A DNA stretch of 64,000 nt from a virus. The notes under the pieces were generated by a model. The model worked only from the letters and a program-made list of their open reading frames with translations. It was not told the DNA's origin and did no database searches. This document shows, one piece after another, positions 1,309-51,256 of this stretch (positions are counted from its first letter, which is position 1; every line of letters begins with the position of its first letter). The stretch covers positions 1 through 64,000 of IMG/VR virus record IMGVR_UViG_3300042888_002550; one strand, given 5' to 3'. Position numbers and translations under genes: made by a program.

Positions 1309-1926
1309 TTACGCACTACAACCATAACATTCAAATTGACTATCAGTAGGTTTCTCAGGTTTAATTTGTTTACCCATATCAATAGCTAAATGTTTACCTT
1401 TCATTTCTACCGGTTGACTTCTTAGGTAGTATTGACCAGTTTTTAAACCTAACTTCCAAGCTAATGTGTGTGAGGTAGTTAATTTACCAACCGTTGGTGT
1501 GGCGAAAAATATGTTAAGACTTTGAGATTGATCAATGAATGGAGCTCTTTCGGCCGACATTTCAATAAGAGATTTTTGTGATATCTCCCAAACAGTTTTA
1601 TATCTTTCCTTCATTTCTTGACTAATAACTGGGATTGATTGAACGCTACCATCATTTTTTATCAATTCATTAAGAATGTCCCTATTCCATAACCCTTCTA
1701 ATTCTAAATCTTTAACCAAATGTTTATTAACCATAGCGAATTCACCACCAGTTACCTTACGAACATATAAATTAGAAGTAAACGGTTCAAAAGCTTCATT
1801 AGAACCTATGACACGGGCCGAATTATGACTAACACAACCATTTTCCATTATATAATGATGAACATTTGGTACTTCAATATCCCAAGTTGGTTTAACTCCG
1901 TTTTTAATTATACTTTTTATTTTCAT
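1309..1926 (-). CDS. nrdA: NrdA fragment 3: IntC2 plus C-terminal extein of class Ia ribonucleotide reductase
   Basis: The first 35 residues (from MKIKSIIKNG) are the C-terminal half of a split intein: a block F-like stretch PNVHHYIMENG and a block G ending VSHN, followed by the +1 serine. The remaining 170 residues are the C-terminus of the NrdA large subunit, resuming at SARVIGSNEAFEPFTSN. It keeps the tyrosine pair in TGQYYLRSQ (radical-transfer tyrosines, E. coli Tyr730/731) and a C-terminal CYGC redox pair. The ATG at 1926 is chosen because it follows an A-rich leader and gives a typical IntC length. An alternative ATG at 1968 would add 14 residues and overlap the preceding fragment by 11 bases. 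The protein can only act after trans-splicing to fragment 2. Confidence 0.9.
   Translation of the reverse strand: MKIKSIIKNGVKPTWDIEVPNVHHYIMENGCVSHNSARVIGSNEAFEPFTSNLYVRKVTGGEFAMVNKHLVKDLELEGLWNRDILNELIKNDGSVQSIPVISQEMKERYKTVWEISQKSLIEMSAERAPFIDQSQSLNIFFATPTVGKLTTSHTLAWKLGLKTGQYYLRSQPVEMKGKHLAIDMGKQIKPEKPTDSQFECYGCSA
1822..1926 (-). other. Split intein 2, C-terminal half (IntC2)
   Basis: 35 codons ending in the splice-site pair His-Asn with Ser as the first extein residue. Its partner IntN2 ends the ORF immediately upstream. Confidence 0.9.
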
Positions 1927-1957
1927 TTTATTTTTTGTTTTTATTAGATTACTTATT

Positions 1958-2944
1958 TTATTTTTCAAAAATATTTATAATATCGTCCGTAGTTAATAAA
2001 TCCTCAACTTTAACCCAAATTTCAGTATCACCTCTTTTAATCCTAAATTTATGGTTAGGTGTTGCTTCAAATATAGAACCATCTTCCATTTCAATTTTAT
2101 AAACTTCAGAATGACCATTATATTTTATTTGACTTACATCTTCATACCCATTATAAGTTTTTACTTTTATAGGTGTTTTAAATTCAACCCATTGTTGTTC
2201 ATTAGATTCTTCTAATTTAACATAATCAACACCATTTTCAACTAGTAAATCTTTAAATGATTTAACACCATTTTCAGTATGTATTCTAGTATCAATAACT
2301 TGACAACTTGCGGTTGGCGGACAGGTCGTGACAAGTGAGTTTCTAACACCATATTTTTTAATATCTTTTCTTAATTGTTTCCAATCAAACATACCACTCA
2401 ATTCAGATTCATCAACACCCCACATTTCCCATTGGAAAATACCTTTTGAAATTGGAGATCCTTCATAAAAATCATAAGTTAATCCAGTTTCTTTCGCTAA
2501 ATCACAAGATTGTCTTAAAGCGTTATAATAAATTGTTTCAAATATTTTTTTATTTAATGATCTAGCTTCTTCAGATACAAATGGTAATCGTAACATAGCG
2601 AAAGTGTCAGCTAATCCTTGGATACCAATACCTAAAGCTCTTTGTTCTAAACCACCTTTTCTACCTTCTTTAGTTGAATATTCATTAACATCTATCGCAA
2701 TATTAAGTGATTTTGTTATTGATCGTGTAACACGACCTAATTCATTAAAATCATACTCATTATCTATGACAAATTTTTGAACCGGTATTGACGTTAGCGT
2801 ACAGATGGCGGTGGTTTCTTTATCAGTTACCTCCATAATTTCGGAATTATGTACTAATATATTATTAGCAAAGAAATTACTAGTTTCTTCTACTTGTATA
2901 TCATATACATCAATTTTTTCTTCTAATTTTTTTATTTTTATCAT
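1958..2944 (-). CDS. nrdA: NrdA fragment 2: IntC1, middle extein and IntN2
   Basis: A 328-residue ORF with inteins at both ends. Residues 1-33 are an IntC (ETSNFFANNILVHN). Residues 34-213 are NrdA, starting SEIMEVTDKETTAICTL, where E35 matches the catalytic glutamate (E. coli Glu441) and C48 the active-site disulfide cysteine (Cys462). The extein ends at TTCPPTAS. Residues 214-328 are an IntN starting CQVIDTRIHTENG, with block B ATPNHKF. The ORF starts two bases after the stop of fragment 1, so the pieces form one operon without an intervening gene. This fragment has neither the radical cysteine nor the radical-transfer tyrosines and must be spliced on both sides. I see no homing endonuclease domain. 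Confidence 0.92.
   Translation of the reverse strand: MIKIKKLEEKIDVYDIQVEETSNFFANNILVHNSEIMEVTDKETTAICTLTSIPVQKFVIDNEYDFNELGRVTRSITKSLNIAIDVNEYSTKEGRKGGLEQRALGIGIQGLADTFAMLRLPFVSEEARSLNKKIFETIYYNALRQSCDLAKETGLTYDFYEGSPISKGIFQWEMWGVDESELSGMFDWKQLRKDIKKYGVRNSLVTTCPPTASCQVIDTRIHTENGVKSFKDLLVENGVDYVKLEESNEQQWVEFKTPIKVKTYNGYEDVSQIKYNGHSEVYKIEMEDGSIFEATPNHKFRIKRGDTEIWVKVEDLLTTDDIINIFEK
1961..2305 (-). other. Split intein 2, N-terminal half (IntN2)
   Basis: 115 codons. The first residue is Cys (nucleophile) after the extein sequence PPTAS, and block B reads ATPNHKF. The C-extein resumes with SARVIG, so the insertion lies inside the conserved PTAS-x-x-(I/V) loop of NrdA. Confidence 0.9.
2846..2944 (-). 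other. Split intein 1, C-terminal half (IntC1)
   Basis: 33 codons forming the start of NrdA fragment 2, ending NNILVHN, with Ser as the +1 residue. Its sequence is clearly different from IntC2. Confidence 0.9.
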
Positions 2945-2945
2945 C

Positions 2946-4511
2946 TTATTTATTAATAATTAATTCATCATTTTCATTTAATTCACCGGCCATAACATAC
3001 CCTCTGTTTTTTGTTAATATTTGGTGATCTGGTGTACAAACTATTTTTACCCCTAACTCATCATCACTAACTTCTATAATTTCAGCGTTTGATTTCATTT
3101 TCGCAGCAGCCAACATTGGTCTAAAAATATTATCTTGACTTAAAACTTTTATATTTTTATCCTTTTTAATTTCTTCAACAACATTTTTCATAGTTACTTC
3201 TCTAATCTCACCATTACCATACATAATCGTAATTAATGTGTCACTATGTAAACAACATAGGTTACTTGAATGTATAACACCAAAATTCTTTTGATTTGAT
3301 TTATTATTCGCATGATCTTTAAAACACATATAAGGCATACCACTTTCAATTTGTGATTCAATAATTCTTAACCACAAATCGTGAGCTTTGATTTTAGTAC
3401 CTAAACCCATCTCAACAGCCTTATTATATTCTAACTCATATTCTTCACCATAGATATCATAAAATGGTTTTAAACCAGCTTGTTTAATGTCATTAGGACA
3501 AAACAAATACCAATCCCCATTTGATTCAACAGCTCTCATAAAGTTATCCGGTATCCATAACGCTGAAAATAAATCTCGTGCTCTAAGTGTTTCATCACCA
3601 GTTTTCTTTCTAATATCCAAAATATCAAATACATCTTTATGCCAAGGTTCAATATAAACAGCGCAAGATCCAGGTCGTTTACCTCTTTGATTCCAAAATC
3701 TTAAAGCTTCATTTACAACTTTTAAATATTTTAAAATACCACCAGCTTTACCATTTGATTGTCCAACATTACTTTCCTTTGAACGAATGTTAGATATAGC
3801 TAAACCAATACCTTCAGCTTTAGATGATGATACTGATATTCTATTTAACATACTTAATAACCCCTCAGTTGAGTCATCCGGAACTATAGATAAATTACAT
3901 GACGCAATTTGTCCTATATTAGTACCAATATTAATTTTTATAGGCGTAGCTGGAGATTCCCTTTGTAAACTTAAATCTTCATACTTTTCTTTAAAATCAG
4001 TAGGGTTATTAGTCACCATTAAAGCTACTCTAATGTATAGGTGTTGTGGTCTTTCTGTTATTTCATCACCAATTTTTAATAAGTAGATATCTTTAAGTGA
4101 ACACCATCCAAAATAATCAAATCTATAATCTCTTTTATAATCAATTACTGATTCAATCAGATCAATATTTTCTTTTACTTTATTATAATAGAAATCATTT
4201 AATAAACCAGCGTTATATAATCTTTTAGTAGCCTTCATAAAAGAATCTTCAGTTTCTTTATGTAATTTACTAATTGATATGTTAGCGGCCAACTTAGAAT
4301 AGTCTGGATGATTCATAGCTAATGATTCTGACACAACTGAAATTAAATCATCAACTTCATCGGTTGTCATATTATCAGCAATACCTTGAGTAACTTTAAG
4401 AAATACTTCATCAGCATTTATTTTTAACCCTTCCGCTTGTTTTTTTATTCTAGTTAAAATTTTATTTGGGTTGAAATCAATCTTAGACCCATTTCTTTTT
4501 ATTACTCGCAT
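2946..4511 (-). CDS. nrdA: NrdA fragment 1: N-terminal extein plus IntN1 of class Ia ribonucleotide reductase
   Basis: A 521-residue ORF. Residues 1-419 are the N-terminal part of the aerobic class Ia large subunit, which reduces ribonucleoside diphosphates. An ATP-cone-like start (MRVIKRNGSKIDFNPNKI) is followed by the barrel, with C205 in IASCNLSIVPDD (E. coli Cys225) and the finger-loop N-L-C motif ending at C419 (E. coli radical Cys439). Residue 420 is the first cysteine of an intein N-half (CLHSDTLITI, block B CTPDHQI), which fills the remaining 102 residues. Joined exteins 419+180+170 give about 769 residues, matching NrdA (754-761 in T4 and E. coli). It lies between nrdB upstream and fragment 2 downstream on the same strand. 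Confidence 0.93.
   Translation of the reverse strand: MRVIKRNGSKIDFNPNKILTRIKKQAEGLKINADEVFLKVTQGIADNMTTDEVDDLISVVSESLAMNHPDYSKLAANISISKLHKETEDSFMKATKRLYNAGLLNDFYYNKVKENIDLIESVIDYKRDYRFDYFGWCSLKDIYLLKIGDEITERPQHLYIRVALMVTNNPTDFKEKYEDLSLQRESPATPIKINIGTNIGQIASCNLSIVPDDSTEGLLSMLNRISVSSSKAEGIGLAISNIRSKESNVGQSNGKAGGILKYLKVVNEALRFWNQRGKRPGSCAVYIEPWHKDVFDILDIRKKTGDETLRARDLFSALWIPDNFMRAVESNGDWYLFCPNDIKQAGLKPFYDIYGEEYELEYNKAVEMGLGTKIKAHDLWLRIIESQIESGMPYMCFKDHANNKSNQKNFGVIHSSNLCCLHSDTLITIMYGNGEIREVTMKNVVEEIKKDKNIKVLSQDNIFRPMLAAAKMKSNAEIIEVSDDELGVKIVCTPDHQILTKNRGYVMAGELNENDELIINK
2949..3254 (-). other. Split intein 1, N-terminal half (IntN1)
   Basis: 102 codons starting at the second cysteine of SNLCC and ending two residues after ELIINK begins; block A is CLHSDTLITI and block B CTPDHQI. 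The first cysteine of the pair is the NrdA radical cysteine, so the splice site touches the catalytic residue. Confidence 0.9.
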
Positions 4512-20367: not shown

Positions 20368-22452
20368 TTAAGAGTTAAAAATGTAATTTGGTTTAGTTTT
20401 TTTACCGGTAAAAGCTTCTCCTTTGGTGATATTACTGAAAACTTCACTCATAAAAGTATTTTTTATACTAATTGATAATTTTTCTTTCTCTTCGTCAGAA
20501 ATATTAAAATTTTTACCATCAATCGCCACAGATCCATTTACATTAACATTTATATTGATTGGGGTACTAGAACCTACATTTATGTTAGAAGTCCCATTAG
20601 AGCCCATTTGGGTACTTCTGGAGGCCATTGGTGAAGATATCCCACCATTAGCGAATTTAACTCCACCACCTAATTCATTAATTGAAGATAATAGGGGTTT
20701 AAACATTGATGTGGATTTTTTATTGATTATGGCTTCACCACCTTCAACTTCAAACATGTTACCAGAACCTTTAGTTGTTACCGGAATACCACCTTGTTTA
20801 TGGGAGGGACCATTAAAAAGACCTCCATCACCATATTCAACCATACCACCTTTAGCTTTAATATCTAAAAATTTAGTCACTATTTTTTCCATCGCGGTCA
20901 CTGCGGTTGTAAAAGTAAAACCACCGGTAGCGATTTTTTCGGCAATTATTGAAAGACTTGTGTTTAGAGTAGTGGTTACTGTTTCAAATCCTTTAATACC
21001 TTTATCTATAAGTCCTGTGGCGGCTTCTTTAGATTTAGTATCTTCAAGAATTTTTTTAATTGAACTCATACCTTCTTTTATATCAGTATTGACTTTGGAG
21101 TTATTAGCTAGGGTTGCAACATTTGGTGTTAAAGCTATAATTTGACCACCCAAACGACTTAATTGATCTGTCAAGTTAATTGACGCTGTAACCTGATCTT
21201 TAATTCCTTGTACAGCGTCTTTAGGTTCTTTACTTTCTTTTTCTTTAGTGGATTCTTTTAACGCTTTAACTAATTCACCCATATTTTCTGATGTAATATT
21301 ATTAGCATCAATCATACCTTTTGAATCTATACCACGGTCTTTTTTAAATTGCTCGTCTAATTTATCAACGCCAGTTAATTGAATTTTTCCACCACTACTT
21401 TTACTAAAATCAATAAATCCTTGTAATACATTTAGATCTTCTGTCGGTAAATTTAAATTGTATTTACCACTTAATTCAGTAAGTTTAGCCATTTTTTGAG
21501 CCATATCCTGAAATTGATCTGCAGTCATTTGAGATTTTTCAATAAGACCATCCATTATTTCTTGATTTCCCCCAATAAGTTGAAAAGTCCCATCTACATT
21601 TGTCATTAAAGAAGCTGCTGATTTAGCTAATTTTAAATTATATTCTTTAAGTCCTTCAGCCCCAGAATGACTCATTCGTAATATTTCATTAGCATCACCT
21701 AATTCTTGAGCTATTGTACCACCATACATTTGCATCTGTTGTGCAAATTCAATAGCTTTTTCTGGACTTCTTAAATCTTTCAGTTTTTTTGTGGCTTCTC
21801 CCATATTAACCCCTAACATAACAGAACTTTGTGCCATTGATGCCATTTCTGTTGCACCACCTTTAAAAGTATACCTAGATAAAGCTTTAAAATTGGATGA
21901 AACCGCTTCAGATACTTTCTTAGAATTTAACCCCATTTTTTGGGAACTATCAACCATTTGAGCGACAACTTCATTAGAACTTTCTAGGCTATAACCAACA
22001 CTAATTAAGTCTTTAGCTAAATCACCAGCTGTTGCGTCACCAATTTTTTCACTTAATGCCGCAAAACCTTTAATAGCTTCTGTTGTAACACCAACAAAAG
22101 TCCCACTATTATCTGATAATTTACCAATAGCTTCTGCGGATTTAGCTATACTAGAACCCATTCGTTCTAGTTCACTACCAGCTTCTTGTAAGTTACTTGA
22201 TAATAATCTTGTATATGAATTAGCAGTACTAAAACTTTTTAAAGTACCACCAAAATTTTTAGTGATATTTAAAGTACTCGTATTAACTTTTTCCCAATAA
22301 CTATAATATTTCCCAGCAGCACCTATTAATTTTTTAAGTGTACCTTCCATAGTTGATATAGTACCAGCAACTGCGGTAGCTCCGGCCCCCAAAGTATCTG
22401 TTAATTTACTTAATGCGTCAAACGCTGAACCTCCCGGTGGTGTGGCTGCCAT
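20368..22452 (-). CDS. Tail tape measure protein
   Basis: A 694-residue, largely alpha-helical protein with alternating hydrophobic and polar residues (SSNLQEAGSELERMGSSIAK and similar), which sets tail length. The C-terminal part has a typical tape-measure hydrophobic/glycine stretch (KGGMVEYGDGGLFNGPSHKQ), then ITVNV-like beta repeats near NINVGSSTPININVNVNG. Length compares with T4 gp29 (590). It sits immediately downstream of the overlapping chaperone pair, the standard position in tailed phages. Confidence 0.85.
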   Translation of the reverse strand: MAATPPGGSAFDALSKLTDTLGAGATAVAGTISTMEGTLKKLIGAAGKYYSYWEKVNTSTLNITKNFGGTLKSFSTANSYTRLLSSNLQEAGSELERMGSSIAKSAEAIGKLSDNSGTFVGVTTEAIKGFAALSEKIGDATAGDLAKDLISVGYSLESSNEVVAQMVDSSQKMGLNSKKVSEAVSSNFKALSRYTFKGGATEMASMAQSSVMLGVNMGEATKKLKDLRSPEKAIEFAQQMQMYGGTIAQELGDANEILRMSHSGAEGLKEYNLKLAKSAASLMTNVDGTFQLIGGNQEIMDGLIEKSQMTADQFQDMAQKMAKLTELSGKYNLNLPTEDLNVLQGFIDFSKSSGGKIQLTGVDKLDEQFKKDRGIDSKGMIDANNITSENMGELVKALKESTKEKESKEPKDAVQGIKDQVTASINLTDQLSRLGGQIIALTPNVATLANNSKVNTDIKEGMSSIKKILEDTKSKEAATGLIDKGIKGFETVTTTLNTSLSIIAEKIATGGFTFTTAVTAMEKIVTKFLDIKAKGGMVEYGDGGLFNGPSHKQGGIPVTTKGSGNMFEVEGGEAIINKKSTSMFKPLLSSINELGGGVKFANGGISSPMASRSTQMGSNGTSNINVGSSTPININVNVNGSVAIDGKNFNISDEEKEKLSISIKNTFMSEVFSNITKGEAFTGKKTKPNYIFNS

Positions 22453-22463
22453 ATGTGTTAAAT

Positions 22464-22688
22464 TTATTCGTCTTTATTATGTTCCTCAATCAACTTATCT
22501 AAAAAATATTTTCGTTGATATGTAGGCATTTTATAAATATCTGAATAATTAAAATTACAATGTTTTACCAACATATAAATTTCATCCAATAAATGTTGGT
22601 GATAATTAAGATTAAATCCAGAAAAAATTAGCTCCGATGGGAAGAAAGCTCCTAATGGACTCACCCCCGGGAATCCTAACTTCAACAT
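22464..22688 (-). CDS. Tail assembly chaperone second frame (gp51/T-like)
   Basis: A 74-residue reading frame in the +1/-2 frame relative to the upstream gene and overlapping its 3' end by 77 bases. The C-terminal half (EIYMLVKHCNFNYSDIYKMP, then YQRKYFLDKLIEEH) resembles the tail-assembly chaperone partner seen downstream of gpG-like proteins and T4 gp51. It could be translated from the ATG at 22688 (directly after an in-frame TAA) or as a fusion after a -2 frameshift at 22660-22668, which would give a 305-residue product. The tape measure gene begins 12 bases after it, supporting a chaperone role for the tape measure. Confidence 0.7.
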   Translation of the reverse strand: MLKLGFPGVSPLGAFFPSELIFSGFNLNYHQHLLDEIYMLVKHCNFNYSDIYKMPTYQRKYFLDKLIEEHNKDE

Positions 22689-23379
22689 TTAAATCTAGTC
22701 CAGGTTCAATTTCATTATAATATGTTTTTAAGGATAACGAATCACCCAAAGGTATTTTATGGAACATAGAAGAAATTTTTAACTTATCTCTAATACCATC
22801 AATTTCCATAACCATAGATTCTAATCTGAATTTAGATTTTTCAGAAATACCATCAGTACTAAACTCTGAATGGGCTTCGTCTTTTAAATCAATATCACTT
22901 TCATCTTTACCGGTTAAAAGTCTAAATTTAACTAACTTACCACTCATAGGTAATTTATATTCAAATTCACCATTCTCATCTGGTTTGGCCAATAATTGTT
23001 TTGGTTTTATTAAACTTAAATCAATTTCACCCATTACGGTTCTATCTGAACCGTCAGTTAATGTGATTGGAACTTTATAAATTGGACCAAAACCGGTTGT
23101 ACGTAAAAATAAAATGATGGCCATTCTGTCTCCGGATAATAAATCTAATGGATCTAAACCACCCAAATCTTTAACTTTTCGTTTGATTAAAATGTCAATA
23201 AACTTACCATTCTTCATAATATTTGGAGAGGTAAGAATTGATTCATCTAAAGCGTTAAGATAACTAACTTTAGCTTTTGAGATTTTATTTTTATATAGAA
23301 TACCATTAGATGGTAACTCTATAACATCATAAGATGTTAATTCTTCTTGAAATTGATTTTCTGGTTTTAAATGATCCAT
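22612..23379 (-). CDS. 26: Baseplate hub/tail assembly chaperone, gp26-like (PF12322 type)
   Basis: A 255-residue protein that begins with a conserved assembly-chaperone pattern (IELPSNGILYKNKISKAKVS, then SPNIMKNGKFIDILIKRKV). This resembles T4 baseplate hub assembly protein gp26 (208 residues) and, functionally, the G protein of lambda-like tails. The C-terminus reads VRIPGGESIRSFLPIG and contains the GGGGGTGA slip site discussed below. It lies directly upstream of the overlapping small frame and the tape measure gene. Start at 23379 follows an ATATTTAT box 40 bases away. Confidence 0.7.
   Translation of the reverse strand: MDHLKPENQFQEELTSYDVIELPSNGILYKNKISKAKVSYLNALDESILTSPNIMKNGKFIDILIKRKVKDLGGLDPLDLLSGDRMAIILFLRTTGFGPIYKVPITLTDGSDRTVMGEIDLSLIKPKQLLAKPDENGEFEYKLPMSGKLVKFRLLTGKDESDIDLKDEAHSEFSTDGISEKSKFRLESMVMEIDGIRDKLKISSMFHKIPLGDSLSLKTYYNEIEPGLDLNVEVRIPGGESIRSFLPIGANFFWI
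22660..22668 (-). other. Candidate -2 programmed ribosomal frameshift site
   Basis: In the frame of the gp26-like gene the codons are CCC GGG GGT GAG. A -2 slip after GGT makes the next codon GTG and enters exactly the frame of the downstream 74-residue ORF, which is open from there to its end. The string GGGGGTGA closely resembles GGGGGCGA, known as the -2 slip site of the phage Mu tail chaperone genes. Confidence 0.6.
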
Positions 23380-26488: not shown

Positions 26489-28156
26489 TTACATTTTCCA
26501 CTCCCAACGAGTTACCCCACAATCATATATTCTATTAAAACCTCTTTCTGACATAATTAATTTTTCAGTCTTATTTTTATCAAAACCACTTTTAATAAGA
26601 TTTTTTTTCTTAAAATTCAAACGATGAAATCTTAATTCATTTTTAATGTAATAATAATTGGGTTTTGATTTATGGATGTATTCAAAACCGAGATTTTTAT
26701 ACAATCCCCCACCAAATAATCTATTATCTGAATAACTTAAAATCATTTTTGGGTTATAATTTTTAATATAGTAATTGAATAATTTTGATCCACCACCAAT
26801 GACATTATAATTAATTAAATTAGAAAAACGTAATAGTTCTGAAAAATCATCTTTATAATTACCAACACCACTTCTAGTGCCAAATGTCATAACTGAAACT
26901 AGAACCTCATTATGATATAAACCTAATTTGACCTTTGACAAACAATCACCCTGGATATGATTATTAAGTAAAAATTCTGAACTAACTTTTTTACTAATTT
27001 CTTTTATAACACATTTTCTACCATATATTTTATTTTCAATCATACCGAAACGATTTTTTATGATAGATTTTACAATATCTTTTTTAAATAACCATTCATC
27101 CTCAAAAATCTGAATTAATTCAACTCCCAATTCTAAACACCTATTATATTTGTTTAAATGATAATTTTCTGATTTAAATAAATCACTATGATAATATAAC
27201 CCATTAAATTCAATCCCTATATTATGTTCTGGTAAGTATAAATCTAATTCTAATGGTGATATTATTTTTCTTGTGTTTCTTTCAATATTACTAATACCCA
27301 ATTCTAAAAGGTAATCGTAAACTTCTTTTTCTCTATGTGATGATAAAGAATTTATTGGATTACAATTAATACAAGTTTCATAACCCAATCTTCTTCTCTC
27401 ATTATAAAGTGGACTAAATATTTTATAATTTTGATTACATTTATCACATAACAATGTAAATTCTTTTATGTTGGTATCGTATGAAATAAATTCATTTTCT
27501 TTAAATCTGTTTTTAATATTTTGTAATGTAGTCTTTTCTTTTTTTAATATAATATCCGGATGTAATGAAGGTGATTTAAATCCCCACTTAGATAAGTTGT
27601 TCTCAACAATCTTATCTTTAATTATTTTAGATTTTGAAGGGTTACTTACACCATATTTTTTTAAAGATGTTTCAACCGCTTTTTCTTTATTAACATAATT
27701 TTCATCACCATATTTTTTTAATCTAGTTTTTTTTGATTTTACTGAATTAGTGTAATTTTCATCACCATATCGTTTTAGTTTAGTTTCTTTAACTTTTTCT
27801 TTGAATGTACTATGTTGTGAAAAGTATTCAACACCCCAAGTTTCCTTCATTTTTATTTTAACTAAATCAAGTAGTTTACCACTATTGTTGGCACAATCTA
27901 ATGAACAAAATTTATTGTAACCCCTATCAAATCTATCTGTGAAGGTTACAATATTATCACAACCACCACACTTTGGTTTTGTGGTAATATTATGGAAATA
28001 GTTCCAAATTTTTTCTTTGAATGAATGATTATCTAAATCATATGTTTTTGAATGATGTATGATTTTATCATAAACATCTTTATGGTTTTTATTAAACCAA
28101 ACTTCTCTGGTTTTATGGCCAGAGGTATTGTTCTCAAGGAAAAAAGAAAAATTCAT
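26489..28156 (-). CDS. Free-standing homing endonuclease, Vsr/EDxHD-like (copy 1)
   Basis: A 555-residue protein. The N-terminal zinc-binding pairs CGGC/CSLDC and CDKC/CINC flank repeated K-K-Y-G-D-E-N units (residues about 130-190), which are DNA-binding repeats found in phage homing endonucleases. A Vsr-like nuclease core follows: SPLELDLYLP, NIGIEFNGLYYHSD and LIQIFEDEW. The C-terminal 200 residues (GRKCVIKEI, then VIGGGSKLF and LYKNLGFEY) resemble a GNAT-type fold. It interrupts the tail structural region downstream of the tail tube gene. A 9-bp inverted repeat covers its start codon. It is paralogous to the plus-strand gene at 28762. Confidence 0.85.
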   Translation of the reverse strand: MNFSFFLENNTSGHKTREVWFNKNHKDVYDKIIHHSKTYDLDNHSFKEKIWNYFHNITTKPKCGGCDNIVTFTDRFDRGYNKFCSLDCANNSGKLLDLVKIKMKETWGVEYFSQHSTFKEKVKETKLKRYGDENYTNSVKSKKTRLKKYGDENYVNKEKAVETSLKKYGVSNPSKSKIIKDKIVENNLSKWGFKSPSLHPDIILKKEKTTLQNIKNRFKENEFISYDTNIKEFTLLCDKCNQNYKIFSPLYNERRRLGYETCINCNPINSLSSHREKEVYDYLLELGISNIERNTRKIISPLELDLYLPEHNIGIEFNGLYYHSDLFKSENYHLNKYNRCLELGVELIQIFEDEWLFKKDIVKSIIKNRFGMIENKIYGRKCVIKEISKKVSSEFLLNNHIQGDCLSKVKLGLYHNEVLVSVMTFGTRSGVGNYKDDFSELLRFSNLINYNVIGGGSKLFNYYIKNYNPKMILSYSDNRLFGGGLYKNLGFEYIHKSKPNYYYIKNELRFHRLNFKKKNLIKSGFDKNKTEKLIMSERGFNRIYDCGVTRWEWKM

Positions 28157-28203: not shown

Positions 28204-28695
28204 TTAGAATAATAATACAGCGTAATCAAATCTTAATGAAGCCGCGATGTCAGCTAAATCACCACTTTCGTAACTTAAATCACCAAAATTAATATCACCA
28301 CTTAACCAAGTGTTAACTAATCTCCATTTTTCAATTACAACTCCGGTCGGATCTAACATTTCAAGTTCAACATCTTTTTTGTACCCAGCGGCATAACCTT
28401 GTCTACCAGTTACAGATTCTGAATGTAAACGCACCCACTCCATAATCGCTTGAGATGCGGATGGACCAATAGGATCTCTAAAAGTCACACTAATTGGATT
28501 CCAATTATATTTACCCAAAACATAAGTTTCAGTATTTAGAAAAGGTATAACAACTTCAGCTTGTGTAATTGAGGGTCTAGCGGCAGAACCTAACCACCAT
28601 TCTTGAATACCTAATTCAGCTGGAAATCTAAGTATCCATCTATTTTTCTTTTTAGGTTCGTATGGCATAGGCATACGCAGTAATAAATCAGCCAT
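28204..28695 (-). CDS. 19: Tail tube protein gp19-like
   Basis: A 163-residue protein matching T4 gp19 (163 residues) in length and layout: a basic N-terminus (PYEPKKKNRWILRFPAELG), then ITQAEVVIPFLN and KYNWNPISVTFRDPIGPSAS, and a C-terminal strand SLRFDYAVLLF. Tube hexamers stack inside the sheath to form the DNA channel. It is flanked on both sides by homing endonuclease genes, copy 1 downstream and copy 2 upstream on the opposite strand. This isolates it from the sheath gene, which in T4 lies next to it. Confidence 0.88.
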   Translation of the reverse strand: MADLLLRMPMPYEPKKKNRWILRFPAELGIQEWWLGSAARPSITQAEVVIPFLNTETYVLGKYNWNPISVTFRDPIGPSASQAIMEWVRLHSESVTGRQGYAAGYKKDVELEMLDPTGVVIEKWRLVNTWLSGDINFGDLSYESGDLADIAASLRFDYAVLLF

Positions 28696-28755: not shown

Positions 28756-28763
28756 ATAAATAT
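28756..28763 (-). promoter_or_regulatory. Promoter box ATATTTAT for tail tube gene
   Basis: Coding-strand CCATATTTATAATTAAAG, 60 bases before the tail tube ATG. It overlaps the start codon of the endonuclease on the other strand. Confidence 0.45.
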
Positions 28764-30387
28764 GGTGAATTTGGAAAAGTTTTTTATTATTGAAAATAAA
28801 AATGGTAAAAGAAGTCAAGAATCTTATTTAAAAGACAATTTTAATGATTTACATAAAAAAATAATTCATTTTAATAAAAAAAATCTTAATGAAATTTCAT
28901 TCAAAGAAAAAATTTGGCACTACATACATAATGTTGATACAAAAATTTTATGTAAAAAATGTGATAAGGAATTAAAATTTAAGCGTAGTCTTTCTGAGGG
29001 TTATGGTGTGTATTGTTCAAGAGAATGTACTAATCAATGTGAAGAACATATTAAAAAAGTAAAAGAAACAAATGATAAAAAGTATGGTGGTCAAGGTACA
29101 TCATCGGAAAGTATTAATGATAAAATTAAAAACACAACTTTAAAAAATTTTGGTGTTGATAATTTCTTTAAACGAAAAGATTTAATACAAGATAAGTTCA
29201 TAGAAAAATATAATGTCCCCGGTGTATGGGCGGTTGAAGGTGTATCAGATAAAATAAAAGATACTAATATTAAAAAAATTGGTTTAGTTTCTAATCTACT
29301 AACGAAAGAATCTCAATACAAATCGTTGGAAACTAAAAGAAAAATTTTTAGAGAAAAGTATGAAAGATTTAATATACTATCAGATGAAGGGGACGATATT
29401 AAAATTTTATGTGATAAATGTCATAATAATTTTATTATTAATCGATCAGTACTCTACAATAGGAATAGTATGGATGTAGAAGTTTGTACACTCTGTAATC
29501 CAGTTACAAACTCCATTAGTTATAGTGAGAGTGAGGTGTTAAATTATATTAAAGAACTATTACCACTAGAAGAGATTAAAGAGAAAGATAGGAAAGTAAT
29601 TTACCCCCAGGAGATAGATGTATTAATACCAAATAAAAATATTGGTATAGAATATAATGGATTGTTTTGGCACTCATCTTATAAGGTTAGTAATGATTAT
29701 CATTTTAAAAAATATAAAAAATGTTCTGAACAAAACATTAAACTCATACAGATATTTGAGGATGAGTGGTTACATAAAAAAGAAATTGTTAAATCAATTT
29801 TAAATACAAACTTCAATATATTTGATCAGGTGATTTATGGTAGGAAGTGTGTTATTAAAGAGATTGATAGTAAGATGTGTAAAGAATTTGTTGATCAAAA
29901 TCATATACAAGGACATCATAATTCAAAAATAAAGATTGGATTATTCTATAATGATAAATTGGTATCTGTCATGACATTTGGTTCTTTAAGAAAATCCCTC
30001 GGTATGAAGAGTGTTGATGGATCATATGAAATGGTTAGATTCTGTAATTTAAAAAATAGTAAAGTGATTGGTGGTGGATCAAAACTATTTAGATACTTTT
30101 TAAAAACTTATCAACCCTCCGATATCATATCCTTTTCAGATAGTAGGTACTTTACCGGAGATTTATATGAAAAATTGGGATTTACATTTAATGGTGAAAC
30201 TAAATCCAATTATCACTATATTAAAGGTGGTAAAAGAATTAATAGATTTAACTATAGAAAGGATGTGTTAGTATCTATGGGGTATGATAAGAATAAGAGT
30301 GAACGAGAAATAACTGAAGAGATGGGGTTATTAAGAATATATGATTGTGGTTGTAAGAAATGGTGTTATAATAATGTCACCACTTAA
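28762..30387 (+). CDS. Free-standing homing endonuclease, Vsr/EDxHD-like (copy 2)
   Basis: A 541-residue paralogue of the protein at 26489-28156, encoded on the opposite strand. It has the same order of parts: zinc pairs CKKC/CSREC and CDKC/CTLC, degenerate K-x-x-G-V-D-N repeats, a Vsr-like core YPQEIDVLIP, IGIEYNGLFWHSS and LIQIFEDEW, and a C-terminal GNAT-like region with VIGGGSKLF and LYEKLGFTF ending RIYDCGCKKW. The two cores look about half identical by eye. Its stop codon overlaps the end of the convergent HAD gene by four bases. It is one of only four plus-strand genes here, consistent with a mobile gene. The target is presumably in or near the tail tube region. Confidence 0.85.
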   Translation: MVNLEKFFIIENKNGKRSQESYLKDNFNDLHKKIIHFNKKNLNEISFKEKIWHYIHNVDTKILCKKCDKELKFKRSLSEGYGVYCSRECTNQCEEHIKKVKETNDKKYGGQGTSSESINDKIKNTTLKNFGVDNFFKRKDLIQDKFIEKYNVPGVWAVEGVSDKIKDTNIKKIGLVSNLLTKESQYKSLETKRKIFREKYERFNILSDEGDDIKILCDKCHNNFIINRSVLYNRNSMDVEVCTLCNPVTNSISYSESEVLNYIKELLPLEEIKEKDRKVIYPQEIDVLIPNKNIGIEYNGLFWHSSYKVSNDYHFKKYKKCSEQNIKLIQIFEDEWLHKKEIVKSILNTNFNIFDQVIYGRKCVIKEIDSKMCKEFVDQNHIQGHHNSKIKIGLFYNDKLVSVMTFGSLRKSLGMKSVDGSYEMVRFCNLKNSKVIGGGSKLFRYFLKTYQPSDIISFSDSRYFTGDLYEKLGFTFNGETKSNYHYIKGGKRINRFNYRKDVLVSMGYDKNKSEREITEEMGLLRIYDCGCKKWCYNNVTT

Positions 30388-37643: not shown

Positions 37644-40025
37644 TTATATAAAATTATAATAGTTAAATAAGTTTGTAGCTGAGTTTGTTATAGATGAAAT
37701 ATTAACTGTTAATGGAGATTGACCTTGATTTTGACTTATGGTTAGATTGTTATTTGAATAGGTAAATCCAGTAGTATATGTATCAACAGTTGTTGGTAAA
37801 TTATAATAAGTTGTCGCTGAAACTGAACTAAACGTGGCACCACCATCACCTAAAATCCAAGCTGTTGGAGTACCTATGTTATTTTCAAGTGTAATAGTTT
37901 TATCTGTATCATTACCAGTGCCACCACGAAATTGAACACTATTTTGTGTTGGGTTTGTTATAATCTCTGGGTTAGATGAATTATTGTAGGCTTGTTGAAG
38001 TGTTGTTGTAGATATACCTGCAGTACCACCACCAAGTTCACCAAATTTAGATACTATGTGAAATAAAGCTTGACTAGTACTTGATAAATTAGTTGCGTCT
38101 GAACGTAATGATAAAACACCTATAAGAATAGCGTTATCTCTAAAATTAGCAAATGTCGTAAAATTTTCATTTTGTGTGGCAGCTATTGCTGTGGGTAAAT
38201 CAATATATTTTTGTTGACCATATTGTAACCTAATTTGACCATTTTGTAATAAGAATATCCTTTGGTTTGTAGCTTGTTTTGCGGGCGTTCCAACAGGTGT
38301 AATGACACCATTTAGATCATAACTACCTGGTATAACTAGAGTTGTATTTGAAGCTGTTCCTCCAGTCCGTGTTCTATATTGAAATGTTGTTGGACTATTA
38401 GAAGGTACGGTAAAACGACTTGGATTTAAAACATCGTTAACGAAATTAATACCTAACCCCCAAATATAACCAGCACTTGTGTTAAAATTTAAATTAACAC
38501 CATTTGGACTACTTACAACCCCATCATTTATAAGTTTAATTGGTGAGAACACATCACGAAGTTGTGATAATGGTGAAATATCTAAATCTGGTTCATTAAA
38601 AGCGTTAATAAGTGATGTTTTATTACCATGACCTAATTTACCTAAATAAATGGATAATCTTCTTTGTTGTGGTGTTGGGAATGTTGGTTGTAATGATATT
38701 GTCCCACCACTTGTTAATAAAATATATGTTTCGGTATCAGTTGTTAGATAGGGTGTAGTTAAACCACTTTGACCGATAAATGGTACATATAAAGCGTTTG
38801 GTTTTAATGGATTTGATGTATTGTCTACTATATAAGCTTCTACACTACCAACATTAAATGTATTACCGGTTGATATTGAAATACCTTTAAACTCAAATAC
38901 ACCTGTAGATATAACATTACCTTCTAATACATTTCTCTCTAAATCGGTAAAAGATAGTATAGGATTTTCATTTTCTATATTAACAAATAACTTTCCGGTA
39001 GTACTACCTGTTTGAATAACATAACCAACACTATTTGTTCTAGCGGTTAAAGGAAATGTGAAATATTTACTAGCCTCATCTATATTACCAGGAATACTAT
39101 CTGAAGCGTACATCAGTGAACCAACCGTCATACCAGTTAATTCTATATTACTAATAATACCACTAGTGATAACAATCCCTTCAGTATTATTAGGAATTAT
39201 TTCAGCGGACATACCTATGATACTAAAACCTTCATGTTTATTTATCGCTAAGATTACCGATGGTAAACCATTATAGGCTGATAATATTTCTAACGCTTTA
39301 CCCCTTTGTATATCTACACCACTATTATTAAAAACTCGTATATAATTTTGTTGACCTAAATTTACCGTAACACCTTGATTAATTGATGTGTTATACGATA
39401 ACGCTTTTTCAGTATTATCAAAATAAACAGTACCTGGTAGGGTAGTACCACTTGTTGTACCAGTATTAAAAATAATATAATTTAAATTACTAACTGATGT
39501 CGCGGTTACTACATTAAAATTAGAATTCCCATTAACCGTTAAACCAGTCATTAATGATATATTTACATTTAATGGGGATTGGTTATTATTTTGTAATATT
39601 GTTAAATTATTGTTTGAATATGTAAACCCAGTTGTGTATGTATCAACTGAAGTAGATGTAAAACCAGTTACTAATATAGAACCATCTTGTCTATTTAATG
39701 TTAAGGTAGTCCCACTAAAAGTTCCACCTGTTACATAATAATCATTAATACCTGTTAAATATTGTCCGTCACCATAGAAAGTTGTCGCTGAAATTGTTGT
39801 GGCAGATATACTTGGTACGTATAGAGTGCCAGTCATAATATCACCAGTTCTAGCTACTCGATCCCATCCGATTGGTATTATAGAATTTGCGGTAGTACCA
39901 GAAGCGTATAAAATAACATCAGCAAAATTTAGTGCCAATTCTTTTAATTCTAAATCACCATCACTAGGTACTTTACCTGGTACATTTGAACCTTTTAATA
40001 ATAATTTATTTTTCCTAACACTCAT
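37644..40025 (-). CDS. Tail fibre protein
   Basis: A 793-residue fibre protein. The N-terminal attachment-like region (KVPSDGDLELKELALNFADV, then ILYASGTTANSIIPIGWDRV) is partly shared with the gene at 40864. It includes two copies of a DTYTTGFTYSNNNLTI repeat (near residue 125 and at the C-terminus) separated by long beta-rich segments. The protein ends abruptly after the second repeat (NLFNYYNFI), which may mark a truncated fibre tip now followed by an acquired adhesin unit. Its start codon overlaps the stop of the GIY-YIG gene by 11 bases. Confidence 0.7.
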   Translation of the reverse strand: MSVRKNKLLLKGSNVPGKVPSDGDLELKELALNFADVILYASGTTANSIIPIGWDRVARTGDIMTGTLYVPSISATTISATTFYGDGQYLTGINDYYVTGGTFSGTTLTLNRQDGSILVTGFTSTSVDTYTTGFTYSNNNLTILQNNNQSPLNVNISLMTGLTVNGNSNFNVVTATSVSNLNYIIFNTGTTSGTTLPGTVYFDNTEKALSYNTSINQGVTVNLGQQNYIRVFNNSGVDIQRGKALEILSAYNGLPSVILAINKHEGFSIIGMSAEIIPNNTEGIVITSGIISNIELTGMTVGSLMYASDSIPGNIDEASKYFTFPLTARTNSVGYVIQTGSTTGKLFVNIENENPILSFTDLERNVLEGNVISTGVFEFKGISISTGNTFNVGSVEAYIVDNTSNPLKPNALYVPFIGQSGLTTPYLTTDTETYILLTSGGTISLQPTFPTPQQRRLSIYLGKLGHGNKTSLINAFNEPDLDISPLSQLRDVFSPIKLINDGVVSSPNGVNLNFNTSAGYIWGLGINFVNDVLNPSRFTVPSNSPTTFQYRTRTGGTASNTTLVIPGSYDLNGVITPVGTPAKQATNQRIFLLQNGQIRLQYGQQKYIDLPTAIAATQNENFTTFANFRDNAILIGVLSLRSDATNLSSTSQALFHIVSKFGELGGGTAGISTTTLQQAYNNSSNPEIITNPTQNSVQFRGGTGNDTDKTITLENNIGTPTAWILGDGGATFSSVSATTYYNLPTTVDTYTTGFTYSNNNLTISQNQGQSPLTVNISSITNSATNLFNYYNFI

Positions 40026-40722
40026 AGTTAATGTTGTAAGACCATTTATAATTTTTATGTGTTTTACCCTTACCTAAAGCAACTGCACTAACTTTTTTAA
40101 AGTTAAAACCATCTTTGGTTACTTCACTTAAAAAATCATATTCTTTAATTAAATTATTATTTAAATCAAACTTATATACTTTTTTTCTATTTGTAGGTTT
40201 ACCATAATTATTACCATTTTTACCTATCTGTTTTAGACTAATTTTAATTTTAGTTTCATTAGAACAAGGTAATCTCTTCCTTAGTTTAGCGGATATACTC
40301 AACTTTTCTTTATGTTCTTTAGTTAATTTTTTATTTTTATTCCAAGAAGCCGGTAATTTTAATCCCTTATTCCAAGCTATTTGTTTAGTAATATGTTTTA
40401 TACCGGAATTATTAGGGCAAGCTAGTTTAGCTATATTATAACCAATATCTTTATTATATGGTTTATATAAATCTAAATAATATTGTTCTAAGATCATTAA
40501 ATTATCTTGTGTAGTGTGTTCTATTATTTCAAAATTAAAATTAATTTCACTATGTTTATTCCAAGAATTTTGTAATATTTTGTTACAATGTTTATTATTC
40601 CGTAAATGATTTAAATGGGTATATTTCCTAAGATGGAAATTATTAGTACTACCAATATAGATTTTATTAGTTATTAAATTTGTTATTTTATAAATAACAG
40701 GTGTTTTTATCTTATCAGCCAT
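40015..40722 (-). CDS. GIY-YIG homing endonuclease
   Basis: A 235-residue free-standing endonuclease. The catalytic motif is VIYKITNLITNKIYIGST near residues 9-26, with the family's conserved glutamate in MILEQYYLDLYKP. Two NUMOD3-type DNA-binding repeats follow (KLTKEHKEKLSISAKLRK and NETKIKISLKQIGKN), then a C-terminal NUMOD1-like region (KKVYKFDLNNNLIKEYDFLS). It is inserted between two tail fibre genes and overlaps the start of the downstream one, so it is likely spread by homing into fibre loci. A 14-bp palindrome and a promoter box are upstream. Confidence 0.88.
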   Translation of the reverse strand: MADKIKTPVIYKITNLITNKIYIGSTNNFHLRKYTHLNHLRNNKHCNKILQNSWNKHSEINFNFEIIEHTTQDNLMILEQYYLDLYKPYNKDIGYNIAKLACPNNSGIKHITKQIAWNKGLKLPASWNKNKKLTKEHKEKLSISAKLRKRLPCSNETKIKISLKQIGKNGNNYGKPTNRKKVYKFDLNNNLIKEYDFLSEVTKDGFNFKKVSAVALGKGKTHKNYKWSYNINYEC

Positions 40723-48046: not shown

Positions 48047-51000
48047 CTAAAAGTATTCTGTATCAGTTGGTTCATTAATAATTTCAGTAGGTTCAATTTC
48101 CGTGATATACATATATTCCGGATTAGCACCAACCTTTTCCCAAAAGTCAATTTCTTTTTGTTCCATAACAAAAACATCATCTAATGTATCCTGATCAATA
48201 GGATCTGTTGGGAAACCAGAACATAGTTCAAGTTGTTTCTTGGTAAAATATTGTCTTTTTGATGGATTATCAATTAAAATATCACTTCTAATTTCCGGAC
48301 TAAAACAAACAATTAATGGTTCAATCCTAGTGTTAAAAGCCACTAAATATTTAGTGACATTATACTCACCCTTTAAATCTGGATTATTCTCAATTTGATT
48401 AGTTAAGATTAACGATGAATTAAATTCAATGTCAGTAGTACCATCTTTATTCTTTTTAGCTTTAACATCAGCGTGAGATTTTTTAGTACCGGTATTAATA
48501 TAATATATTGTGTCACCAAGGTTAACATTAATATTTTCTTTTAATAAAAGTTCCATATGAGCCTGACGTGGCATAGGATTACCGGCTTTATTCTTCCTTT
48601 TAGTATTTTCTTTATAACTTTCTAATGTTTGTTTTACTTTCCCTTTACTAGCGATTTTAAGTAATGGGATTTCTTGGTTATAAATCATTTCAACATTCTC
48701 ATAATAAAGTTCAATGAATTCATTACCATTACCTTCTAATAACATTCTAATCGCTTTATCTAAAAAATCTTCAATGTACTTTGGCATCTTAGCCGATTTA
48801 ATTGTATTACCAACTAACTTAACTTCACCATCAATTAAATCCGCATAATTTTTTCTTGATAAATTAATAGTTGATTCAATTACCTCATCAATACCTAACT
48901 TCATAAAACCTCTCATATACTTTTCATTGAACTCAGCTAAAGCCGCTTCAATACCATTATATATTTTATCTTTAACAACTGTTAAGTGAGTACCTAAACC
49001 AGTGTATGTTAATTCTTTAGCGTTTTCTGGTATCTTAAAGTTGAAACCATCGGTATTATGGGCGATTATTTTACCCTTACCGATAATAAATGTCCCATCT
49101 TCTGTTGAAACATCATAGACAAAATTATTTGGACATGGGTTGTCAATATCAGATATATTAGTGATTAAACCTTGACTGACATCCCCATTTTCATAAACAT
49201 CAATATATTCACCAATTTTTAATGATGAAGGTTTTATTTCAACCCCATTTTGAAAAAGTGAATGGTCTTCCGTCACATCAACATTACCCCTATCTTTTAT
49301 TGAAATTGATTTAATTTGTTTTTCTGTACCATGTCTATAAACATACTTAATATCTTTCCAACCACTTCTAGTTAATATCTTATATGGTTTATCTGAGTAA
49401 TCTCTTAATTGATCACCTTCAATAGTACCAGTTATATCAAATAAATCTGAAATTGGTAAAATGTCTAATATATCATCACCATATTTAATATAAACAGGTG
49501 TGTCATACGTCACACTATCACCTACTATTGGTTCAAACCCCTTATCCATAAAGAATTTAATCATCAATCGTAGATATTGTCTACCAGTACAAGTGATCAT
49601 CGCACCAATGTTAGTATCACCCCAAGGAAATACATCTGGGGCTGATAATGAACCAAAGTTAGAGTTATTAAGAATTTTAATTGGTAATTGTTTCTTATCA
49701 AACATATCAGCCCCTTTATCGTCCCCTTCTCTTTGAGCTTTTTTCATTAGATTCTTATATAAATCTCGTTCCGCGAATAAATAAGTTAACATACCTTTTA
49801 ACGCACCGGTAATATCAACTTCTGGGAATACATCGTGAGTTAATTGTATTGAAGGGTAAAGTGATCCATAATCTAATTTAACTACATTTGGTACGAAACC
49901 AATTCTTAATAAACGAGATAATCCACCAGGAAATTTTTCTTTAGGTTGATAATCAGGTATAGCTAAACCATTCTCATATGACCAAGTACACATCAATACT
50001 TTCCATAAGGCCGCTGTACCCATTGTAGAGGTTCTTTGTAATGTTGATGGAACTAATTTAGACAATAAAAATGTCGCTTGATTATATTTGTAGTCAACTT
50101 GTTCTGTTTCCCATAAATCATCTATTAGATATTTCTTAATTATAAATTTACCATCCACTTCTTCCCATCCTTCATAACCAGTTTTATCTTCCGGAACTAC
50201 CATATACTTACCATCAGATTCGTTAAATAAGTAAGGACGTTCATCTACCCAAATTTTAGCGATCTTATCGTGACCAACATATACACGATTAGGTTTAGCG
50301 ATTTTAGAATATTTTGTAATATACTTCAAACCAGTTTCTTTGATGTTTGAATTAATGGCTTTAGCTCTTCTAACCGCGTGCCACACATCAATAACGTTAT
50401 AACCCCATAATACAGTTTGTTGATAATACTCCATCTCACCACCTAATTTTAAAGTAGCTTGTTTACGATAAAGTGGCATACCATTCTTAAGTGTCTTAGT
50501 AATTTTTTTATAATCTAAATTAAGTAATTCACAACGACCTAAAATATATGTCCAGTCAAAGTTCTCTGAATTATAACCACAAATAATATCTGGTTTTAAT
50601 TCATCAATAATATTAAAAAATGTATAAATCGCGTTTCGTTCTTCATCATCACTATCAATATCTAATACGTGTTCAAAACCACGATTATCTTTCATACCAA
50701 TTTGTAAAATTCTACCGGTTTCTGGTGTTAAAGATGTGGTTTCAATATCAAAAGAAAATCTAACTAAATCCGCGTAATCATCAAACCCTTTAAATAATCT
50801 TTTACCACTTTGTATTAAGAATTGCTCTGTAGGGCCAAGGGTTAAAAAACCCTTCCTATTTTCTTCCTTTTGAATATCAATACCGGATTCTTTAAAAAAG
50901 TTAGTAATATTTCTATAACTACCTCTGGTTTGAACTAAGAACTTAAAACCATTTTCTAAACGTTTGTGGATATTACCATTTTCATCCTCTAATTTAAGGG

Positions 51001-51256
51001 GTGTAATTGTAATCATGTGTTCTCTTAACTTAGTTTTGATAAGTCTACGATCACCTTTAAAAAACTTATCCATATCCGGACTTTTCATCCAAAGGAATGG
51101 TTTAAACTTATGTTTTTCAATACGTTTCCCAGTAATGGGATCATTTATAATAAGATTAACAAAATTTTGATCGTAGGTTGATTCAATACCAATAATATAC
51201 TTTTGTGGGTCTCTACCCTCCAAAAAATCCTTAATTTCTTCTTTACTTAATTCCAT
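48047..51256 (-). CDS. 43: Family B DNA polymerase gp43 with mini-intein
   Basis: A 1069-residue ORF: about 915 residues of polymerase plus a 154-residue intein. The proofreading domain has Exo I FDIETTSL and Exo II YNSENFDWTYI. The polymerase domain has motif A DYGSLYPS, motif B KILNNSNFGSLS and motif C GDTDG. Motif C is split: extein GFEPIVGD, then the intein starting SVTYDTPVYI, ending IIAHN, then TDGFNF. The length without the intein is close to T4 gp43 (898). A TATATTTG promoter box lies upstream and a strong terminator downstream. It is separate from the replication block at 5-10 kb. Confidence 0.93.
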   Translation of the reverse strand: MELSKEEIKDFLEGRDPQKYIIGIESTYDQNFVNLIINDPITGKRIEKHKFKPFLWMKSPDMDKFFKGDRRLIKTKLREHMITITPLKLEDENGNIHKRLENGFKFLVQTRGSYRNITNFFKESGIDIQKEENRKGFLTLGPTEQFLIQSGKRLFKGFDDYADLVRFSFDIETTSLTPETGRILQIGMKDNRGFEHVLDIDSDDEERNAIYTFFNIIDELKPDIICGYNSENFDWTYILGRCELLNLDYKKITKTLKNGMPLYRKQATLKLGGEMEYYQQTVLWGYNVIDVWHAVRRAKAINSNIKETGLKYITKYSKIAKPNRVYVGHDKIAKIWVDERPYLFNESDGKYMVVPEDKTGYEGWEEVDGKFIIKKYLIDDLWETEQVDYKYNQATFLLSKLVPSTLQRTSTMGTAALWKVLMCTWSYENGLAIPDYQPKEKFPGGLSRLLRIGFVPNVVKLDYGSLYPSIQLTHDVFPEVDITGALKGMLTYLFAERDLYKNLMKKAQREGDDKGADMFDKKQLPIKILNNSNFGSLSAPDVFPWGDTNIGAMITCTGRQYLRLMIKFFMDKGFEPIVGDSVTYDTPVYIKYGDDILDILPISDLFDITGTIEGDQLRDYSDKPYKILTRSGWKDIKYVYRHGTEKQIKSISIKDRGNVDVTEDHSLFQNGVEIKPSSLKIGEYIDVYENGDVSQGLITNISDIDNPCPNNFVYDVSTEDGTFIIGKGKIIAHNTDGFNFKIPENAKELTYTGLGTHLTVVKDKIYNGIEAALAEFNEKYMRGFMKLGIDEVIESTINLSRKNYADLIDGEVKLVGNTIKSAKMPKYIEDFLDKAIRMLLEGNGNEFIELYYENVEMIYNQEIPLLKIASKGKVKQTLESYKENTKRKNKAGNPMPRQAHMELLLKENINVNLGDTIYYINTGTKKSHADVKAKKNKDGTTDIEFNSSLILTNQIENNPDLKGEYNVTKYLVAFNTRIEPLIVCFSPEIRSDILIDNPSKRQYFTKKQLELCSGFPTDPIDQDTLDDVFVMEQKEIDFWEKVGANPEYMYITEIEPTEIINEPTDTEYF
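49055..49516 (-). other. Cis mini-intein in DNA polymerase motif C
   Basis: 154 codons starting with Ser (SVTYDTPVYI), with block B VDVTEDHSLF and C-terminal blocks FVYDVSTEDGTFI and IIAHN before Thr. No endonuclease domain is present in this length. The site, between GD and TD of the catalytic motif, matches the polymerase intein site used in archaeal family B enzymes. Confidence 0.93.

What the first reader, a model, noticed from the sequence alone, without database searches (positions are those of the whole stretch)
22464..23379. Probable -2 frameshift producing a tail assembly chaperone fusion
The gp26-like gene and the 74-residue frame overlap by 77 bases. A GGGGGTGA string in phase GGG GGT GA, very close to the -2 slip site of phage Mu, would lead exactly into the second frame and give a 305-residue fusion. 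The pair sits just before the tape measure gene, the canonical place for gpG/gpGT-type frameshifts. T4 uses separate genes 26 and 51, so this would link two known arrangements.
Basis: partly seen in the sequence, partly recalled or inferred. Interest (0 to 1): 0.72.

Follow-up and report, generated by a model that had tools for sequence, protein, structure and literature searches.

The report
Plus-one frameshift fuses tail chaperones
A large T4-related phage appears to make two versions of a tail-building helper protein from one stretch of DNA, because some ribosomes skip one letter at a set spot; the skip goes the opposite way from the minus-one shift reported for T4-like relatives, and a small RNA hairpin just upstream probably helps it.

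Summary
The overlap is real: a gp26-like gene (23379-22612, minus strand) and a second frame in +1/-2 phase, just before the probable tape measure gene. Relatives show it is no accident. Of 158 divergent loci, 155 have the same +1-frame ORF, often with no start codon, and selection switches from the zero frame to the +1 frame inside the gene. The zero-frame protein is T4 gp26-like and the second frame gp51-like. T4 gp51 is itself a gp26-like domain joined to a gp51-like domain, so the predicted product matches a T4 protein.

The proposed slip site is wrong. GGGGGTGA lies in the loop and 3' arm of a covarying RNA hairpin (22676-22657), is not a conserved slip string, and in 20 of 39 close relatives slipping there would hit a stop at once. 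The best site is UUU_C at 22647-22644, exactly 9 nt 3' of the hairpin, read by +1 slippage (304-residue fusion). A second lineage has a different hairpin and UUU_C at the same spacing. Most other relatives slip +1 at UUU_UUU_UGG.

Published T4-like cases use -1 poly-U shifts or separate genes. This is a new variant of a known kind, still needing protein evidence.

The parts
22612..23379 (-). gp26-like gene, short tail assembly chaperone (TAC-N), 255 aa
   Evidence: 16 of 18 aligned homologues match PF12322 T4_baseplate, best 4.4e-15; profile-profile match to cyanophage/KVP40 gp26, E 3e-8; AlphaFold pLDDT 92, Foldseek matches to viral baseplate hub proteins
22464..22643 (-). +1-frame extension (TAC-C, gp51-like), 59 codons plus stop, as read after the slip at UUU_C
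   Evidence: Profile-profile match of +1 ORFs to gp51 of cyanophages/KVP40, E 1.5e-8; +1-frame selection 3' of the site; fusion 245+59=304 aa
22644..22647 (-). Most likely slip tetranucleotide UUU_C (zero frame AGC UUU CUU CCC)
   Evidence: UUU CUU in all 42 subclade members while 14 other conserved Leu columns are mostly TTA; +1 frame open 37/37 from here against 15% expected from synonymous randomisation
22657..22676 (-). 5' RNA hairpin: arms 22676-22671 (GGAUUC) and 22662-22657 (GAGUCC), G-rich loop 22670-22663; 9 nt spacer to UUU_C
   Evidence: 25 double-sided compensatory cells against 8.3 +/- 2.1 in shuffles; 84.6% paired against 27-54% when slid; folds as drawn in the window
22661..22668 (-).
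22622..22627 (-). U6 run (AAU UUU UUC UGG), homologous to the UUU UUU UGG site used by most other relatives; second-best slip candidate here
20368..22452 (-). Probable tape measure protein, 694 aa, immediately downstream
   Evidence: Position and length; no PHROG or Pfam hit; the relative immuto (L033) has a gene annotated tail tape measure at this position

Best explanation
The locus encodes a two-form tail assembly chaperone. Most ribosomes read the gp26-like gene to its own stop at 22612 and make the short form. A fraction, when Phe-tRNA sits on UUU (22647-22645), slip forward one base onto UUC and read on in the +1 frame. This makes a 304-aa fusion of the gp26-like domain (245 aa) to a gp51-like tail (59 aa), the counterpart of lambda gpGT and of T4 gp51. 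An RNA hairpin whose 3' arm ends exactly 9 nt before UUU probably promotes the slip. Shown from sequence: the conserved +1 ORF, frequent absence of any start codon, the switch in the frame under selection, the covarying hairpin, codon invariance at UUU CUU, and homology of both halves to T4 proteins. Inferred: the direction (+1), the exact slip codon, the hairpin's stimulatory role and the chaperone function. Not known: the efficiency.
For: 155/158 relatives at <85% identity have the +1 ORF; 48/155 lack any ATG/GTG/TTG from its opening to 30 nt past the gp26 stop, as do 17/39 of the window's subclade. Substitutions: 50% at zero-frame third positions up to the site, then 51-64% at +1-frame third positions. 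Subclade: Leu codon after UUU is CTT 42/42, against mostly TTA at 14 other conserved Leu columns; +1 frame from UUU_C open 37/37 against 15% expected under synonymous randomisation, while upstream 18/37 against 61%; +1 stop just 5' of UUU_C in 20/39. Hairpin covariation; a second lineage has another hairpin with the same 9-nt spacing to UUU[C/U]. +1-slippery tetramer 157/157 against 131/221 for the same dipeptides elsewhere; -2 Phe re-pairing impossible in 14. Homology of both halves; T4 gp51 contains both domains. Only one gp26-like gene in each of 10 records of 126-318 kb. UUU_C P-site slippage is an established +1 mechanism (PMC3498833).
Against: No protein or reporter data. The U6 run 21 nt further 3' also keeps a +1-slippery UUU in every relative, so two sites may be used. 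In the window's subclade a -2 slip of Leu-tRNA from CUU to UUC cannot be excluded by sequence. The window itself has an in-frame ATG (22688) and no +1 stop between that ATG and UUU_C. The relatives are not phylogenetically independent, so formal p-values would be overstated. The window hairpin is not unusually stable against shuffles (z -0.5), and RNAalifold recovered only 3 of its 7 pairs.
Confidence: 0.76

Rival explanations
1. +1 frameshift, but at the U6 run (UUU_U, 22626-22623) as in most other relatives; UUU_C and the hairpin are something else.
For: UUU UUU UGG is the site in the main group, where +1 stops lie 5 nt 5' of it in 20 loci and the 18 nt 5' of it show little selection for openness (81/140 against 49.5% expected). 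A slippery UUU is kept there in the window's subclade too.
Against: In the window's subclade the +1 frame between UUU_C and the U run is open 37/37 against 15% expected, and CTT is invariant.
Confidence: 0.13
2. -2 frameshift (Leu-tRNA CUU to UUC at 22644-22642, or Phe at the U run).
For: The phase allows it; poly-U and CUU sites could re-pair. -2 is used by phage Mu and arteriviruses (PMC5009743).
Against: -2 Phe re-pairing impossible in 14/157 relatives while +1 fits 157/157. In the second hairpin lineage UUU is followed by CAA, CCA, CGT and the like, where -2 cannot re-pair.
Confidence: 0.06
3. -2 frameshift at GGGGGTGA.
For: The phase and +1 openness in the window itself allow it.
Against: +1 stop just 3' in 20/39 relatives; string not conserved as a slip site; P-site re-pairing GGG to CCG would be poor; it is explained as a hairpin loop and arm.
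Confidence: 0.02
4. The second frame is an independent overlapping gene with its own start (ATG 22688 or reinitiation).
For: Window ATG at 22688; distant T4-likes (S-PM2, KVP40, phiM12) have an ATG for gp51.
Against: ATG not conserved; 48/155 relatives have no ATG/GTG/TTG at all. In L213 the same ATG runs into TAA. No +1-frame selection 5' of the site.
Confidence: 0.02
5. Transcriptional slippage on the T run yields mRNAs with changed length.
For: T6-T7 runs at the U-run site in most relatives.
Against: The best site here, TTTCTT, has no long run; variants TTTCTTT, TTCTTTT and TTATTTT keep the +1 frame without a run of six.
Confidence: 0.01

Closest known systems
Lambda gpG/gpGT-type tail assembly chaperones (PMC5009743)
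   Same: Short product plus frameshifted longer product, second frame overlapping the first, placed before the tape measure gene
   Different: No sequence relationship was tested or seen here; direction +1, not -1; UUU_C with a 5' hairpin
T4-like TAC genes 26/51 (Vladimirov, Gautam and Davidson 2022, known here only through PMC10885494 and PMC12846349)
   Same: Homologous halves: gp26-like (PF12322) and gp51-like; T4 gp51 is the same two-domain protein
   Different: T4 has two separate genes, short and long; here one gene, one copy, and a frame change
-1 poly-U TAC site of KVP40, S-PM2, S-H38, Mendera
   Same: Same gene pair and homologous position; phenylalanine codons at the gp26 end
   Different: There U UUU UUC with a -1-frame gp51, often with its own ATG; here +1 frame and UUU_C
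Phage Mu -2 TAC frameshift
   Same: Same final reading phase
   Different: G-rich string here is a hairpin loop; slip elsewhere and most likely +1
Influenza A PA-X UUU_C +1 frameshift (PMC3498833)
   Same: P-site Phe-tRNA UUU to UUC, +1
   Different: PA-X has no evident stimulatory structure; here a covarying 5' hairpin 9 nt upstream; bacterial virus, unrelated gene

Membership tests
T4 gp26/gp51 tail assembly chaperones | First product homologous to gp26 (PF12322) | tested here: met
   16/18 homologues hit PF12322, best 4.4e-15; the window protein alone is sub-threshold, E 0.08; hhalign E 3e-8
T4 gp26/gp51 tail assembly chaperones | Second domain homologous to gp51 C-terminal part | tested here: met
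   hhalign E 1.5e-8 to cyanophage/KVP40 gp51; that set matches T4 gp51 residues 200-244, E 1.2e-4
T4 arrangement: separate short and long genes | Second, longer gp26-like gene in the genome | tested here: not met
   One match each in ten records of 126-318 kb and one in the 73-kb window record; fragments possible
gpG/gpGT-type frameshifted TAC | Second ORF overlaps in another frame, lacks a conserved start, lies before the tape measure | tested here: met
gpG/gpGT-type frameshifted TAC | Both products made in a fixed ratio and binding tape measure and tube | not testable with these tools
   Needs proteomics or binding assays
Mu-type -2 frameshift | Conserved G-rich slip string | tested here: not met
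   Not conserved as a slip site; +1 stop 3' of it in 20/39
-1 poly-U TAC frameshift of T4-like phages | Second ORF in the -1 frame across U UUU UUC | tested here: not met
   +1 frame in 155/158 relatives; -1 found only in the cyanophage/KVP40 group, LR756511 and L275, with L126 a possible indel
UUU_C P-site +1 frameshift (PA-X type) | UUU followed by C at the point where the +1 frame becomes constrained | tested here: met
   efficiency not measured

The most novel reading that the evidence does not exclude
In T4-related large phages the tail chaperone fusion is made by +1 slippage on UUU_C, promoted by an RNA hairpin ending exactly 9 nt upstream. This architecture arose at least twice from a +1 poly-U site, and the whole group differs from the -1 poly-U shift of other T4-like phages. 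A 5' hairpin as an authentic +1 stimulator in bacteria would be a new kind of recoding signal.
Probability: 0.5. Interest if true: 0.74.

Novelty: new variant of a known kind. Interest (0 to 1): 0.64.

Why it matters
T4 was long listed as the exception to the conserved tail-chaperone frameshift (PMC5009743), and later work proposed short and long genes for some T4-likes (PMC10885494). Here hundreds of T4-related phages appear to use a frameshift in the +1 direction, with a site and RNA element that can be tested at once in a reporter. It gives a natural series (-1 poly-U, +1 poly-U, +1 UUU_C with hairpin, separate genes) for asking how a recoding signal changes direction while its product is conserved. 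It also suggests that gp51-like parts in these phages are misannotated as small separate genes or missed.

Tried and rejected
Searching with the 74-aa frame alone found no confirmed relatives in IMG/VR and only weak phage hits. Single-protein PHROG/Pfam scans were sub-threshold. A universal RNA structure across the main group was not found: mean z about -1.2 just upstream, no shared pairs. RNAalifold found only 3 of the hairpin pairs. I first placed the slip at the U6 run for the whole family; expanding the window's subclade moved it to UUU_C for that subclade. PDB fold search gave nothing. The Vladimirov 2022 paper is not held, so its claims are taken from papers citing it.

Full report
What is there. 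On the minus strand a 255-aa ORF (23379-22612) overlaps a second ORF (22688-22464) in the +1 (= -2) frame by 77 nt, and a 694-aa ORF in the tape measure position begins 11 nt later. The first ORF belongs to the T4 gp26 family: 16 of 18 homologues hit PF12322, best E 4.4e-15, although the window protein alone is sub-threshold; the profile matches cyanophage/KVP40 gp26 with E 3e-8; the predicted structure (pLDDT 92) resembles viral baseplate hub proteins. The second frame matches the small gp51 of cyanophages and KVP40 (E 1.5e-8). T4 gp51 is itself a gp26-like domain (BLASTP 2e-6 to gp26, hhalign 6.7e-5 over residues 13-201) followed by a gp51-like domain (residues 200-244, 1.2e-4). A gp26+gp51 fusion is therefore a known protein architecture, which fits papers citing Vladimirov et al. 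2022 (PMC10885494, PMC12846349).

Is it conserved. Four IMG/VR searches gave a large family, and a fifth enlarged one lineage. Among 158 loci at <85% identity, 155 have a +1-frame ORF of the expected length across the gp26 end; two exceptions are truncated and one looks like a 1-nt indel. 93 of 155 have no ATG, and 48 have no ATG/GTG/TTG between the opening of the frame and 30 nt past the gp26 stop. Between moderately related pairs, substitutions fall at zero-frame third positions (50%) up to the site, and at +1-frame third positions (51-64%) after it. So the second frame is translated from about there onwards, not from further upstream. Ten large relatives (126-318 kb) hold a single gp26-like gene, so no separate long form was found.

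Where and which way. In most relatives the site is UUU UUU UGG, with +1 stops as close as 5 nt upstream and little selection for openness 5' of it (81/140 open against 49.5% expected). A +1-slippery tetramer (UUU_U, UUU_C or CUU_U) is present in 157/157, against 131/221 for the same dipeptides elsewhere; -2 re-pairing of a Phe tRNA is impossible in 14. Direction +1 is the one reading that fits all. In the window's own subclade (39 distinct loci) the picture differs. TTT CTT is invariant, with Leu CTT in 42/42 where 14 other conserved Leu columns are mostly TTA. From this UUU_C on, the +1 frame is open in 37/37 against 15% expected after synonymous randomisation, while just upstream it is closed in about half, 20 of 39 having a TAA/TAG 5-8 nt before UUU. 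That puts the slip at UUU_C, 22647-22644: Phe-tRNA moves from UUU to UUC, as in influenza PA-X (PMC3498833). The fusion is 245+59=304 aa, and fusions read at the homologous site in relatives with a single suitable word are 299-304 aa (L263 aside, where the upstream start is uncertain).

The hairpin. Over 39 sequences 84.6% of cells pair (27-54% when slid), with 25 double-sided changes against 8.3 in shuffles. Its last base is exactly 9 nt before UUU. A second lineage has an unrelated hairpin, GAAGGUG-(10 nt)-CACCUUC, 98.6% paired with three compensatory cells, also ending 9 nt before an invariant UUU[C/U]. There codons ending in A at the position that would make a +1 TAG are absent (0/58; A ends 54% of body I/L/V codons). 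On a protein tree the two lineages lie apart, each among poly-U-site relatives, so the arrangement was gained at least twice or lost repeatedly. That the hairpin stimulates slippage is inferred from position, covariation and recurrence. The covariation could in part reflect shared ancestry.

Compared with what is known. Tail chaperone frameshifts are -1 in most phages, -2 in Mu and very likely +1 in HSTV-2 (PMC5009743). For T4-like phages, papers report a -1 poly-U signal or separate short and long genes, and KVP40, S-PM2, Mendera and S-H38 indeed show U UUU UUC with a -1-frame gp51. I found no paper describing a +1 version in this family (subscription journals are largely not held). Relatives with annotation (immuto, Mel-JY01) list small separate hypothetical genes.

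Limits. All evidence is comparative; no product has been seen. Phylogenetic dependence inflates counts. Two slip sites may coexist in the window's subclade, and -2 from CUU is not excluded there.

Noticed in passing
window 1309-4511 (-): Ribonucleotide reductase large chain lies in three ORFs whose ends look like two split inteins (Intein_splicing at the end of ORF 1 and start of ORF 2; ORF 2 ends and ORF 3 begins in the same manner by eye). The chain may need two trans-splicing steps.
   Followed up: partly
window 48047-51256 (-): Family B DNA polymerase ORF with an intein-like insertion (about GDSVTYDTPVY...IIAHNTDG) inside the polymerase domain; read by eye only.
   Followed up: no
window 26489-28156 (-) and 28762-30387 (+): Two similar-looking ORFs of 541-555 aa with a weak Mom-family match flank the 163-aa ORF 28204-28695 on opposite strands; possibly mobile genes.
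   Followed up: partly
window 40015-40722 (-): GIY-YIG endonuclease ORF inserted among tail fibre-like genes.
   Followed up: partly
L031 2956-2993 (Synechococcus phage S-H38): gp51-like -1 frame has no ATG until 90 nt past the gp26 stop, and U UUU UUC lies in the overlap: looks dependent on a -1 frameshift, unlike its neighbours S-PM2 and P-RSM4, which have an ATG.
   Followed up: partly
L275 (gp26 end, GAT TTT TTT TTC): A relative inside the +1 group whose second ORF is in the -1 frame: a possible direction switch between close kin.
   Followed up: no
L208, L209, L210, L216 (hairpin region): The hairpin appears kept with the 3' arm shifted by one or two bases (for example CAAUC/GGUUG), so the pair counts understate its conservation.
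   Followed up: partly
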